64,000 nt of DNA from Thermococcus gammatolerans EJ3 (GTDB taxonomy: Archaea; Methanobacteriota_B; Thermococci; Thermococcales; Thermococcaceae): contig NC_012804.1 in the NCBI RefSeq assembly GCF_000022365.1, positions 930,001-994,000 of the forward strand, in the 5' to 3' direction. This document shows positions 12,746 to 52,056 of this stretch, piece after piece. How positions within the stretch are numbered: the first letter of the stretch is position 1; every line of letters begins with the position of its first letter. The notes below the pieces were generated by a model. It was not told the origin of the DNA. It saw only the letters and a program-made list of their open reading frames with translations, and ran no database searches. The position numbers were made by a program, and so were the translations under genes.

Positions 12746-12864
12746 TTGCCGGTCGAGAACCGGCAAGAGTTTATAAAGTCTTGTCGAATGACAATCGCTA
12801 CTTATTTATAAACCCTTGCCGAACGACGTTCCGCAAGGTATATAAATCACGGGGCGTACGTGAT
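12746..12864 (+). promoter_or_regulatory. Array of 35-bp-phased palindromes with a TATA box in each unit
   Basis: Three units start at 12746, 12781 and 12816, exactly 35 bp apart. Each begins with TTG-Y-CG and a palindrome: TTGCCGGT-5-ACCGGCAA, then TTGTC-GAAT-GACAA, then TTGCCGAAC-3-GTTCCGCAA (one mismatch pair). Each is followed at offset 23-24 by a TATA box (TTTATAAA, TTTATAAA, TATATAAA). A different palindrome, ATCACG-7-CGTGAT, sits at 12846-12864 between the last TATA box and the ATG at 12868. The last TATA box predicts a leaderless transcript at about 12867. The layout suggests cooperative repression by a protein binding one face of the DNA, probably autoregulation. Confidence 0.8.
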
Positions 12865-12867
12865 CCC

Positions 12868-14076
12868 ATGGTTGACCTTGAAGAGTACAACCCCTGGTGG
12901 GTGCACGAGGAAGACCCAGACGTCGAGGAGTGGAGGGACTTAGAGTACCGCTACGTCCCCTCGTGGATAAATGACCTCTCGCTCGAACCCTTCTCGGTGA
13001 ACTTCCTCGTCGGGCCGAGGAGGGTCGGCAAAACCCTTGGGGTGAAGCTCCTCATAAAAGAGCTCCTCCGTGAGAGGGAGAACCCATACGAAATCTTTTA
13101 CTTCGACTGCACGATGCTCGACGACCAGAACGACCTCTCCGCCGTTCTCAGGGAGTACCTGAAGCTCAGAGACGCCAAGGGGATAAAGGGCTCCCTCATA
13201 TTTCTCGACGAGGTTACCTCGGTCAGGAACTGGTGGAAGGCGATAATAGACCTGATAAACAGGAGAAAGCTCAGGAACGACGTCGTCACCGTTATGGGCT
13301 CCGTCTCCGTCAACCTCGACCGGGCGGTTGGCCGTTTCGCGGGGAGGAGGGGTAACGGGAGAGTCCTTGAGGTAATGCCCCTCGGCTTCAGGGACTACTA
13401 TAAGCTGGTTACAGGCGTTGAGGACTACTTCGACGGGAAAGGCCAGGACGCCTTCGAAAGCTACCTCCAGACCGGCGGCTACGCCGCTTACCTGAACAGG
13501 AGGATCAGAAAGGGGGACATAGTCGGCTCGCTAAAGGCCGACCTGAGGAGCCTGGAGAAGGAGAAAGACCCCGAGATAGCGAGGGAGATACTGGGGGCCA
13601 TCATATCCAAAGCGCCCAGCCCGCTCTCGTACCGCGAGATCGGTGAGGAAGCCGGAGTCAACAGGGACACCGTGAGGAGCTACGTTTCCGTTCTTTCGGA
13701 GCTCAAAGTACTCTTAGAAATTCCCTTCTCCCAGTGGGGAAAGGAAGTCGTCCCGAAGAAGAACAGGAAGTTTGCCATCAGGGACCCGCTGATGGCGAGG
13801 GCCTTCGCCGAGTGGAGCAGGGTTAGGATCGAGGACTCGGTGCTCTACGAGTGGGTCGTTCAGGAGCACCTCTACCGGAAGTTCAGGGAGGTTTATTACT
13901 TTAGAACTGGCGAATACGAGATCGACGCCGTTGTTCCTGGGATGAGGGTCGAGGTAAAGTCCGGGAAAAGGGGCGGCAGGTATCCAAAGGACGTCATCGT
14001 GCTCGGCGGGAGAGAGGTTCCCCGCTTCCTCTACGGCATAGACTACAGCCCCGTCATCGAGTACGAGAACGTTTGA
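12868..14076 (+). CDS. AAA ATPase with DUF4143-like C-terminus (archaeal ATPase family)
   Basis: 402 residues from ATG 12868, starting MVDLEEYNPWWVHEEDPD; the frame extends 29 codons upstream through the operator array but that part is non-coding by context. Walker A is GPRRVGKT (about 49-56), Walker B is SLIFLDEVT (about 109-117). A helix-turn-helix-like segment lies at about 252-275 (LSYREIGEEAGVNRDTVRSY). The C-terminus has YEIDAVV then RVEVKSGK, the D...ExK pattern of a PD-(D/E)XK nuclease-like fold. This is the AAA_14/DUF4143 class, abundant in Thermococcales and of unclear role. A paralogue lies at 49407. The gene stands alone, convergent with the GTPase gene. Confidence 0.88.
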   Translation: MVDLEEYNPWWVHEEDPDVEEWRDLEYRYVPSWINDLSLEPFSVNFLVGPRRVGKTLGVKLLIKELLRERENPYEIFYFDCTMLDDQNDLSAVLREYLKLRDAKGIKGSLIFLDEVTSVRNWWKAIIDLINRRKLRNDVVTVMGSVSVNLDRAVGRFAGRRGNGRVLEVMPLGFRDYYKLVTGVEDYFDGKGQDAFESYLQTGGYAAYLNRRIRKGDIVGSLKADLRSLEKEKDPEIAREILGAIISKAPSPLSYREIGEEAGVNRDTVRSYVSVLSELKVLLEIPFSQWGKEVVPKKNRKFAIRDPLMARAFAEWSRVRIEDSVLYEWVVQEHLYRKFREVYYFRTGEYEIDAVVPGMRVEVKSGKRGGRYPKDVIVLGGREVPRFLYGIDYSPVIEYENV

Positions 14077-49320: not shown

Positions 49321-49407
49321 TTTGCACTTCCACTGCAAAGAGATTTAAAAATGATTTGCAATAAGAGTGCAAAATCTTTATAAATACCTTTGCACTATAA
49401 ATGCACA
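49321..49407 (+). promoter_or_regulatory. Array of 34-bp-phased palindromes with TATA boxes (second ATPase)
   Basis: Three palindromes start at 49321, 49355 and 49389, exactly 34 bp apart. The first two are TTTGCA-7-TGCAAA; the third is TTTGCA-7-TGCACA. The first two are followed by A/T-rich TATA elements (ATTTAAAAA and TTTATAAAT at 49377-49385). The last TATA box predicts transcription near 49406, at the ATG. The sequence differs from the 12746 array, but number, spacing, TATA position and the kind of gene downstream are the same. Confidence 0.8.
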
Positions 49408-50564
49408 TGCTTGAGGTACAGAACCCATGGTGGATTGGTGAACCCGACAGGGACTGGGAGCTCTTTGAAAAGCTCACCTACAGGGTCAGGCCGAAATGGC
49501 TTGATGAGCTCTCGTTGAGGCCCTTCTCCCTCAACTTCGTCGTCGGCCCGAGAAGGGTCGGGAAGACCATGGGAATAAAGCTCCTCATTAGGGAACTCCT
49601 CAAAAAAGTCCACACTCCCTACGCCGTCTTTTACTTCAGCTGTGACGTGCTTGAGGACTACAAAGAGCTTTTAGAGGTTCTAAACGAGTACCTAAGGCTG
49701 AAGAGACGAAAAAGCGTTAAAACGGCCTTTATATTCCTCGACGAGGTCAGCCTCGTGGATGACTGGTGGCGTGCCTTGAAGTTCCTCATAGACAGAGGCG
49801 AGTTGAGGAGCGACGTCATCACGGTGACCGGCTCGATTTCCCTGACGGTAGGCAGGCATTTTGAGACCTTCGGCGGCAGAAGGGGGAACGGAAAAACAAT
49901 CGAGGTCATGCCGCTGAGCTTCTATGAACACTACAACCTTTTCTACGACGAGTTCTTCCCCTCAATGGGGGAAGAGGTCTTCGAGAACTACATTGAGACC
50001 GGAGGATACTTGGCATACATGAACGGCACCCTTAAGGTCGAGGAGCTCGTGGGCTTCCTGAAGGCCGACTTGAAAGCTTTAGACCGCTCGACCGACCTTG
50101 CGAGGGACGTTATGGGTGCGATACTTGATAAGGCTCCCTCACCTACATCCTTCAACGCGATAGCGAAGGTAGTTGGAATCTCCCCCCACACCGCGAGGGA
50201 TTATGTTGAGCTCTTCGAGGCCTTCCACGTCCTCCTGCAGGTTCTCTACCTTGGAGGCGACGGGAAGGTCTATCCGCGGAAGGAGAGGAAGCTAATCCTC
50301 CGCGACCCGCTCATCGTGAGGGCCATGGAGCTCTGGACGAGGAGGAGGATTGATAAAGCGGTTCTCTACGAGTGGCTCGTCCAGGAGCACCTGTACAGGA
50401 AGTTCGGGGAGGTTTACTATTACAGGAACTCCTACGAGGTTGATGCAATCGCTGGAAACCTGAAGGTCGAGGTGAAGTCGGGGGAGAGAAGGGGGAGGTA
50501 TCCGAGGGACGTTAGAATCCTGAAGGGCCCGGAGGTTCCGGGATTCCTTTACAACCTCACTTAG
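49407..50564 (+). CDS. AAA ATPase with DUF4143-like C-terminus, second copy
   Basis: 385 residues from ATG 49407 (MLEVQNPWWIGEPDRD); ATG 49401 adds two residues. Walker A VGPRRVGKT (about 39-47), Walker B AFIFLDEVS. A helix-turn-helix-like segment FNAIAKVVGISPHTARDYVE lies near 251-270. The C-terminus has YEVDAIA then KVEVKSGERRGRYP, the D...ExK arrangement. It aligns along its length with the ATPase at 12868, but under a different operator sequence. Leaderless by TATA spacing. Its end overlaps a small convergent gene by 8 bp. Biochemical role unknown. Confidence 0.87.
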   Translation: MLEVQNPWWIGEPDRDWELFEKLTYRVRPKWLDELSLRPFSLNFVVGPRRVGKTMGIKLLIRELLKKVHTPYAVFYFSCDVLEDYKELLEVLNEYLRLKRRKSVKTAFIFLDEVSLVDDWWRALKFLIDRGELRSDVITVTGSISLTVGRHFETFGGRRGNGKTIEVMPLSFYEHYNLFYDEFFPSMGEEVFENYIETGGYLAYMNGTLKVEELVGFLKADLKALDRSTDLARDVMGAILDKAPSPTSFNAIAKVVGISPHTARDYVELFEAFHVLLQVLYLGGDGKVYPRKERKLILRDPLIVRAMELWTRRRIDKAVLYEWLVQEHLYRKFGEVYYYRNSYEVDAIAGNLKVEVKSGERRGRYPRDVRILKGPEVPGFLYNLT

Positions 50565-50706
50565 CAAATTCCCTTATCCCCTTCACGTCCCTCCACTGAA
50601 CCAGCCTGAGGAGCTTAACCGTGTAGGCTATCTCAAGCGCGTTCTCCTCCGGGTTTTCGAGGAGTTTGTCGAGCCGGTTGAGTAAGTCCTCCTCCGCTCG
50701 CTTCAT
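50557..50706 (-). CDS. Small unknown helical protein (49 residues)
   Basis: ATG 50706 opens MKRAEEDLLNRLDKLLENPE and the frame ends REFAK at a TGA inside the end of the ATPase gene. Codon content is natural (charged helix, LEIAYTVKLLRLVQWRDV). The frame is open upstream as far as PIEVKSDEA, without a better start. It is downstream of tiaS on the same strand. It could be a short protein or the tail of a decayed gene. No known motif is seen. Confidence 0.45.
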   Translation of the reverse strand: MKRAEEDLLNRLDKLLENPEENALEIAYTVKLLRLVQWRDVKGIREFAK

Positions 50707-50741
50707 GGCCTCATCCGACTTGACCTCTATTGGCCCGAATG

Positions 50742-50771
50742 ATAATCGCGATTATGATAATCCTGATTATC
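50742..50771. repeat. Two adjacent AT-rich palindromes
   Basis: ATAATC-GC-GATTAT (50742-50755) directly abuts GATAATC-CT-GATTATC (50756-50771), both perfect, with centres 15 bp apart. The second covers the tiaS stop. They may be a hairpin terminator, an operator for the small gene, or both. Confidence 0.5.
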
Positions 50772-52056
50772 ATCCCGAGTTCCCTAGGGCTTCTAAAACT
50801 CTCTCTTCCCCACCCGGCAGCACCAGCGGCCTCGACAGATGCTTCCTCGCGTCAGGAGGAACCTCATAAATCTTCCTCTCCAGCTCGCGAGGGACTTCAA
50901 CCGGAATCAGCTTTTTCGGCATTCTGTAGCCACAGCGCTTGCACTTGAGGTAGTCGCCCTTGCTCTTCATCGTTCCCCCACAGCGCGGGCACTTGGGCTT
51001 TCTGTATTCGATTTTCGGGACGAGTTTCACTGGATAGAACTTTTCGAGGTTGAGCGTTAGAACGCCCTCGTGCTCCTTAACCCCTCCAGCGGCAATGATT
51101 TCATCGCCGGGCAGGAGCTTCCGAACGTAGTTCCTGAACTTTTTCGTCGGCTCGAAGGCCGCGACACGTATCTTCCCTGTCTCGTCCTCAAGCTCGAAGA
51201 AAACGTGCCTCCCGCGCTCCCAGTATGGCTTGGAAACCCTTCCCCTGACGACCGCGCTGTCGTATAGCTTCAGCTCGCCGATTTTCTTTGGGGTAAGGTG
51301 ATCGTCGGTGTTCTGGTTCGTCTTGTAGAGCTGGTAGAAGGCAACGGGCTCCCCAAAGCGGACCATCTCAAAGGTCTGGAGAACCCTTCCCCGGTCAATT
51401 CCCCTGAGTCCGACTAGAACGGGGTCTTTGCCGTGAGGCGCTATTAAGATGGTTCTCTTGTAGGGGTCAACGTTGTCGTAAGTGAAAGGATAGCTCCACC
51501 TGTCTGCTAAAAACACGCTCTCTGCATCAACCTTCCTTGGCGTCCCCCAGTTCTCCGGCTCGCGGTAAGCTAAAAGCTCGTAGGTGAAGCGCTCAAGGGG
51601 ATAGCCAATTGAAGCGAGCGCGCCTATTATTCCCCTGCCGAGCTTGAACTTGAAGAACTCCGCACCAACTTCCCTCGCGACTCTTTCAGCCTCTTCGATG
51701 GTTACGTGCTCCCTTAAAGCTTTGAGCGAAAACTCTTGAAGCTCTTCGGGGATTTCGCCCTCGAAAAAGACGACGCCTGGGTTGGTGTTCTCGTGGGTGA
51801 AGTCTGCCAGCTGGTTGACGTAGAACAGCACGAGGTCCTTAACTTCCGGAACAGCCTCCTCATCGACCTCAAAGGTCATCGCAACCGCTCCGTTCCCGCG
51901 CGTCTTGTAGGGGATGTTCGGGTTCAGCCTTATCAGCCTCGGAAGGTCGGTGGGTTCAGCTAAGCGGGAAATCTCGCGGTAGAGGAGCGCCCCGAGGTAG
52001 GTCGTGCACATGCCGTTGGGTGAGTCCGTGTCGTCTATTCCGATGTGGAGGAGCAT
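50770..52056 (-). CDS. tiaS: tRNA(Ile2) 2-agmatinylcytidine synthetase TiaS
   Basis: 428 residues from ATG 52056 ([20 protein letters not shown]). The N-terminal IDDTDS motif, [11 protein letters not shown], the central ferredoxin-like catalytic region, an OB-fold ([20 protein letters not shown]) and a zinc ribbon ([20 protein letters not shown]) are all present. It puts agmatine on C34 of tRNA(Ile) so that AUA is read correctly. A minus-strand TATA (TTTTTAAG near 52083) predicts transcription at the ATG, so leaderless; the longer frame upstream overlaps the next gene. Confidence 0.95.

What the first reader, a model, noticed from the sequence alone, without database searches (positions are those of the whole stretch)
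49321..49407. Same array geometry, different palindrome, in front of the second ATPase
Three TTTGCA-7-TGCAAA-type palindromes at 34-bp phase, TATA boxes between, leaderless start. The two ATPase genes are paralogues. Geometry is kept while sequence differs, as expected if each ATPase recognises its own operator and avoids cross-talk. This would be a general private-operator system for this abundant archaeal ATPase family.
Basis: partly seen in the sequence, partly recalled or inferred. Interest (0 to 1): 0.85.

Follow-up and report, generated by a model that had tools for sequence, protein, structure and literature searches.

The report
ATPase genes with private self-operator arrays
A large family of archaeal (and some bacterial) DNA-binding ATPase-nucleases, listed as candidate antiviral genes, appears to switch itself off through regularly spaced DNA palindromes at its own start site, each gene type using its own palindrome that matches its own DNA-reading helix.

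Summary
Three 19-bp palindromes (TTTGCA-N7-TGCAAA) lie 34 bp apart at 49321-49407, with TATA boxes in the 15-bp spacers, ending on the start codon of an AAA_14-wHTH-DUF4143 ATPase. The paralogue at 12868 has a TGCCGA-type array at 35 bp. Of 90 Thermococcaceae homologues, 82 carry such arrays (83 peak at 34-35 bp; control genes none). Most other archaeal homologues do too, and some bacterial ones at about 41 bp. Arms are conserved, centres and flanks are not. Arrays occur only at these genes, or as orphan arrays where the gene is absent. Operator type follows the start of the wHTH recognition helix, not overall kinship: SPHT goes with TTTGCA in two clades that the rest of the protein separates (p-AU 1.7e-9), SYK with AGAA, SHxTV with TTGATA. 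Rules written down beforehand held in 20 of 20 new archaeal homologues, a few of them near-duplicates. Most likely each ATPase dimer binds its own palindromes and represses its own promoter without cross-talk; binding and repression are inferred. 'Three units' is not general (2-4), and the system is not archaea-only. The family is PADLOC's PDC-S01, an untested antiviral candidate. I found no published report of these operators.

The parts
49321..49339 (.). palindrome unit 1, TTTGCACTTCCACTGCAAA
   Evidence: 0 mismatches; arms 1.26 and 1.53 bits, centre 0.07 bits over 20 homologues
49340..49354 (+). 15-bp spacer 1 with upstream TATA-like box TTTAAAAAT
   Evidence: 0.89 bits
49355..49373 (.). 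palindrome unit 2, TTTGCAATAAGAGTGCAAA
   Evidence: 0 mismatches; arms 1.78 and 1.84 bits, centre 0.09
49374..49388 (+). 15-bp spacer 2 with main TATA box TTTATAAAT (49377-49385)
   Evidence: 1.58 bits; about 30 nt upstream of ATG 49407
49389..49407 (.). palindrome unit 3, TTTGCACTATAAATGCACA (1 mismatch), covering the predicted transcription start and the A of the start codon
49407..50564 (+). AAA_14-wHTH-DUF4143 ATPase gene (ORF called from 49401; ATG 49407 is the conserved start)
   Evidence: PF13173 4.5e-21, PF13635 6.1e-8; PADLOC PDC-S01 8.7e-29; AF2 pLDDT 92
50082..50306 (+). winged helix-turn-helix (residues about 228-302); recognition helix residues 262-274 = 50184-50222 (SPHTARDYVELFE)
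   Evidence: AF2 secondary structure; covaries with operator
50418..50480 (+). PD-(D/E)XK-like nuclease motif: invariant E346, D348, E357, near-invariant K359
   Evidence: naming it a nuclease motif rests on knowledge of the PD-(D/E)XK fold
12747..12765 (.). paralogue array unit 1, TGCCGGTCGAGAACCGGCA
12782..12800 (.). paralogue array unit 2 (degenerate), TGTCGAATGACAATCGCTA
12817..12835 (.). paralogue array unit 3, TGCCGAACGACGTTCCGCA; TATA boxes at 12770, 12805 and 12839
12868..14076 (+). paralogous AAA_14-wHTH-DUF4143 ATPase (helix NRDTVRSY)

Best explanation
The array is a private self-operator. Each AAA_14-wHTH-DUF4143 protein, most likely as dimers through its winged helix, binds the 19-bp palindromes that surround its own TATA box and cover its own transcription start, and so represses its own gene. 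The pattern (about 34 bp: 19-bp site plus 15-bp TATA-bearing spacer) is fixed by promoter geometry, while site sequence is set by the recognition helix and wing, so paralogues in one cell do not cross-regulate. Shown: array geometry, conservation pattern, restriction of the site to its own gene (or orphan arrays), and coupling of site sequence to the start of the recognition helix across archaea. Inferred: physical binding, dimerisation, repression rather than activation, and the benefit (keeping a probably harmful ATPase-nuclease at a low, self-limited level).
For: Phase 34 or 35 in 83 of 90 Thermococcaceae homologues, z>3 in 82, against 0 of 42 control genes (84 of 92). Footprint-like conservation: arms 1.3-1.8 bits, central 3 bp below 0.1 bit in units 1 and 2, upstream 0.29. 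TATA with 7-8 of 8 matches in 92 of 115 spacers. Type A array in 23 of 94 genomes with no control hits, always at the type A gene except two orphan arrays. Sliding 8-residue windows over the whole protein: the top 11 predictors of operator similarity, relatedness removed, all lie in residues 223-306, i.e. the wHTH (42 clusters, region p 0.001, best window family-wise p 0.044). On a tree built without the wHTH, helix class needs 15 changes; SPHT lies in two clades (p-AU 1.7e-9) and all 7 such rows have TTTGCA; 13 of 13 SYK rows have AGAA. Rules noted before the sequences were fetched held in 20 of 20 new archaeal homologues.
Against: No binding or expression data. About 10 Thermococcus genomes keep a good type D array without any homologue at 1e-30; these read best as gene-loss scars, but their good preservation is unexplained. 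Some homologues have one weak or no recognisable site (L048, L134, L354). SHxTV rows fit less tightly (13 of 17). Strict independent-pair counts are too few for significance on their own (SPHT and SYK 2 pairs each, all concordant; SHx mostly undecided). Some of the 20 held-out cases are near-duplicates (e.g. L339, L351, L352).
Confidence: 0.82

Rival explanations
1. A separate transcription factor (Lrp-, TrmB- or MarR-like) encoded elsewhere binds these arrays and controls the ATPases.
For: Archaeal Lrp-like regulators bind clustered palindromes, and Ss-LrpB's own promoter has three sites.
Against: It would need one separate factor per palindrome type, each spreading with its ATPase type and absent from every other promoter; operator sequence is best predicted by the ATPase's own wHTH residues.
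Confidence: 0.07
2. The arrays are recombination or transposition sites of a mobile ATPase-nuclease cassette (ends or homing targets), not operators.
For: Patchy distribution (57 of 94 genomes), varied upstream flanks, orphan arrays without the gene.
Against: Arrays sit on one side only, locked to TATA box and start; no second copy at the 3' end in nearly all genomes; type A copies mostly share a downstream neighbour region, so movement is rare.
Confidence: 0.06
3. The arrays are iteron- or ORB-like origin sites bound by an Orc1/Cdc6-like AAA+ protein.
For: The predicted fold is nearest to Cdc6/Orc1 bound to origin DNA (2qby 4.2e-8, 2v1u 7.6e-7).
Against: Those matches are partial (TM 0.3-0.4) and shared by many AAA+ plus wHTH proteins; two or more different arrays per chromosome, patchy genes and TATA-locked spacing do not fit replication origins; no plasmid record carries a match.
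Confidence: 0.02
4. The ATPase binds its array but mainly activates its own promoter (positive autoregulation, as with Ss-LrpB or C proteins at low dose).
For: Ss-LrpB and restriction-modification C proteins act as both activators and repressors of their own genes.
Against: Sites straddle the TATA box and overlap the start, where binding should block TBP, TFB or polymerase.
Confidence: 0.1

Closest known systems
PDC-S01 / COG1373-like AAA_14-DUF4143 proteins (phage defence candidate)
   Same: The protein belongs here: PADLOC PDC-S01 model E 8.7e-29. PDC-S01 is reported as the fourth most common defence system across prokaryotes, with experimental validation pending for most such candidates (PMC12988326).
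   Different: No operator or self-regulation found described for it in the papers searched.
Ss-LrpB autoregulation (Sulfolobus)
   Same: A dimeric archaeal HTH protein binding three sites in its own control region (PMC6497280, PMC2995911).
   Different: Lrp family, not AAA+; also regulates other genes; sites lie in front of its promoter.
Restriction-modification C proteins and their incompatibility groups
   Same: Self-acting HTH regulators of a nuclease with group-specific operators (PMC3874152).
   Different: A separate small protein; here the regulator would be the ATPase-nuclease itself.
Lambdoid phage cI and OR1-OR3 immunity types
   Same: From general knowledge: three palindromes with fixed layout, repressor-specific sequence, self-regulation, no cross-talk between types.
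   Different: Phage switch between two promoters; unrelated protein; different spacing.

Membership tests
AAA_14-DUF4143 / PDC-S01 | AAA_14 ATPase domain with intact Walker motifs | tested here: met
   PF13173 4.5e-21; G49 P50 R51 V53 G54 K55 T56 and L113 D114 E115 invariant
AAA_14-DUF4143 / PDC-S01 | DUF4143 C-terminal region | tested here: met
   PF13635 6.1e-8, above its cut-off
AAA_14-DUF4143 / PDC-S01 | PADLOC PDC-S01 profile match | tested here: met
   8.7e-29 over residues 44-352
AAA_14-DUF4143 / PDC-S01 | antiviral activity | not testable with these tools
   candidate status only in the literature read
private autoregulatory operator | repeated palindromes over the gene's own promoter | tested here: met
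private autoregulatory operator | sites absent from other promoters | tested here: met
   exceptions are orphan arrays
private autoregulatory operator | operator sequence covaries with the protein's DNA-reading residues | tested here: met
private autoregulatory operator | the protein binds the site and changes transcription | not testable with these tools
   needs gel shift and reporter tests
Orc1/Cdc6 initiator | sequence-level relation to Orc1/Cdc6 | tested here: not met
   no PDB sequence match for profile A1; fold similarity partial only

The most novel reading that the evidence does not exclude
A very widespread prokaryotic family of candidate defence ATPase-nucleases is self-addressed: every lineage carries its own operator type read by a simple recognition-helix code (SPHT reads TTTGCA, SYK reads AGAA, SHxTV reads TTGATA, NRD reads TGCCGA, bacterial KNTL reads AAGATCA). 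The ATPase is thus both effector and repressor, possibly loading as an AAA+ ring over two to four dimer sites, and privacy of the operators sets incompatibility groups that let many copies share one cell.
Probability: 0.45. Interest if true: 0.9.

Novelty: new variant of a known kind. Interest (0 to 1): 0.82.

Why it matters
It gives a first concrete, easily tested molecular activity to one of the commonest unexplained gene families in prokaryotes, listed as a defence candidate. It also offers a natural set of dozens of protein-operator pairs with a readable code, useful for studying how DNA specificity is rewired without cross-talk, and suggests that these genes need tight self-control.

Tried and rejected
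A first type D array pattern had a wrong spacer length and found nothing; it was corrected. A profile search of PDB sequences found nothing. Plasmid records had no match, and viral contigs only eight distant ones. An independent-pairs test was underpowered. A first version of the co-variation test with 18 clusters gave a region p of 0.002 but a family-wise p of only 0.07; with 42 clusters this became 0.044. RNA structure as the function was set aside because the upstream palindromes lie before the predicted transcript start.

Full report
Observation. The three palindromes are exactly where stated (49321, 49355, 49389), 34 bp apart. The only perfect copies of the site in the 2.05-Mb genome are two of these three. 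The spacers are 15 bp and hold TATA boxes. The third unit ends on the A of ATG 49407, the start codon kept in homologues.

The gene and its relatives. The ORF encodes an AAA_14 ATPase domain and DUF4143. The AF2 model (mean pLDDT 92.4) shows an AAA+ core, a winged HTH at about 228-302 and a C-terminal alpha/beta region with invariant E346, D348, E357 and near-invariant K359, which I read as a PD-(D/E)XK nuclease core. PADLOC names the family PDC-S01. Its own genome has seven DUF4143 matches and about fifteen ATPase_2 (PF01637) genes above cut-off.

Generality in Thermococcaceae. 94 genomes gave about 95 homologues. Upstream regions were scored for two alike palindromes at any phase from 24 to 45 bp. 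70 of 92 peak at 34 and 14 at 35. With a second statistic 82 of 90 exceed z = 3, while 42 control genes of the window average z = 0.25 with a maximum of 2.8. Each protein clade has its own half-site: A TTTGCAGT, B TGTAAAGT, C TGCCGAAC (automatic consensus TGnCGATT), D TGAGAACT, E TTGGTAAT, G TTGATAnT, H TGTGAAAGT. Unit number varies from two to four; group H has four. Conservation over 20 type A genes is high in arms, near zero in the centre of units 1 and 2 and low upstream of the array.

Privacy. The two-unit type A pattern occurs in 23 of 94 genomes, none with the reversed control. All hits abut the type A gene except one each in G014 and G036, beside tiaS (loci L206, L207), where no ATPase remains. 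The type D pattern occurs in 54 genomes. About 20 of these are orphan arrays between a gene ending in ISIKV and a YjbQ/UPF0047-like gene (gene naming from knowledge), and ATPase-bearing genomes often have the same upstream gene family, so I read them as scars of gene loss.

Beyond Thermococcaceae. Homologues from Crenarchaeota, Bathyarchaeota, Hydrothermarchaeota, Diapherotrites, Nitrososphaerales and other archaeal genomes have their own paired palindromes at 32-35 bp (9 of 11 with z above 3). A second set of 34 from other archaea has median z 5.3, 24 above 3. Most bacterial homologues have none, but six of those with, or near, a KNTLKRYLEYL helix have AAGATCA-N6-TGATCTT, in several cases twice about 41 bp apart.

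The code. Helix and operator were compared over clusters. With overall relatedness removed, operator similarity is best predicted by windows in the turn and start of the recognition helix (255-268), the wing (293-306) and the first wHTH helix region (223-234); region p 0.001 over 42 clusters. I wrote down helix-to-site rules, then fetched homologues from other archaea. Under the rules as written, 20 of 20 had the predicted site as best-scoring class; with classes widened afterwards to SH[VRL] and SHKTV[FE], 27 of 29. A few of these are near-copies of each other or of L127. On a tree of everything but the wHTH, SHRTV proteins (L320, L321, L338) nest among SYKT proteins, and L320 and L338 carry TTGATA where the SYKT sisters carry AGAA. 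SPHT proteins fall in two clades (AU p 1.7e-9), all with TTTGCA.

Mechanism. From these facts the simplest account is direct self-recognition. A dimer on a 19-bp palindrome covers about two turns of DNA; sites on both sides of the TATA box and over the start would exclude TBP, TFB and polymerase. Binding, dimerisation and sign of control are inferred. AAA+ ring assembly over several dimers is speculation.

Comparison. Layout and logic resemble Ss-LrpB (three sites in its own promoter region; PMC6497280, PMC2995911), restriction-modification C proteins with operator-based incompatibility groups (PMC3874152) and lambdoid immunity types (general knowledge). PDC-S01 is described as a very common, mostly untested defence candidate (PMC12988326). 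Searches for DUF4143, COG1373, AAA_14 and PDC-S01 found no mention of such operators in the open-access library, which lacks most subscription journals.

Wider hint. Among 17 ATPases of the own genome (AAA_14 and PF01637), start-site palindromes are far stronger than in control genes (mean z 3.0 against -0.06, Mann-Whitney p 9e-8), so single private palindromes may be common in the related PF01637 ATPases as well.

Noticed in passing
window 50740-50772: Two overlapping TGATAATC-NN-GATTATCA palindromes between the ATPase and tiaS 3' ends (expected 0.1 by chance); similar TGATAAT...ATTATCA repeats stand beside tiaS in L206 and L207.
   Followed up: partly
L208-L227 (e.g. L208:1475-1527): Orphan type D arrays, many with perfect arms, between two convergent genes in about 20 Thermococcus genomes, ten of which have no homologue at 1e-30; why they persist is unclear.
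   Followed up: partly
own-genome loci L106, L111, L112, L114, L116, L118: PF01637 (ATPase_2) genes carry strong, mutually different single palindromes at their starts, e.g. CCCCAGTAGTTAACTACTGGGG.
   Followed up: partly
L156, L163, L165, L175, L197, L199: Bacterial relatives with AAGATCA-N6-TGATCTT palindromes, often paired about 41 bp apart, matching a KNTLKRYLEYL-type helix.
   Followed up: partly
window 50565-50735, minus strand: Short stretch downstream of the ATPase, read on the minus strand, that looks like the tail of a broken gene.
   Followed up: no
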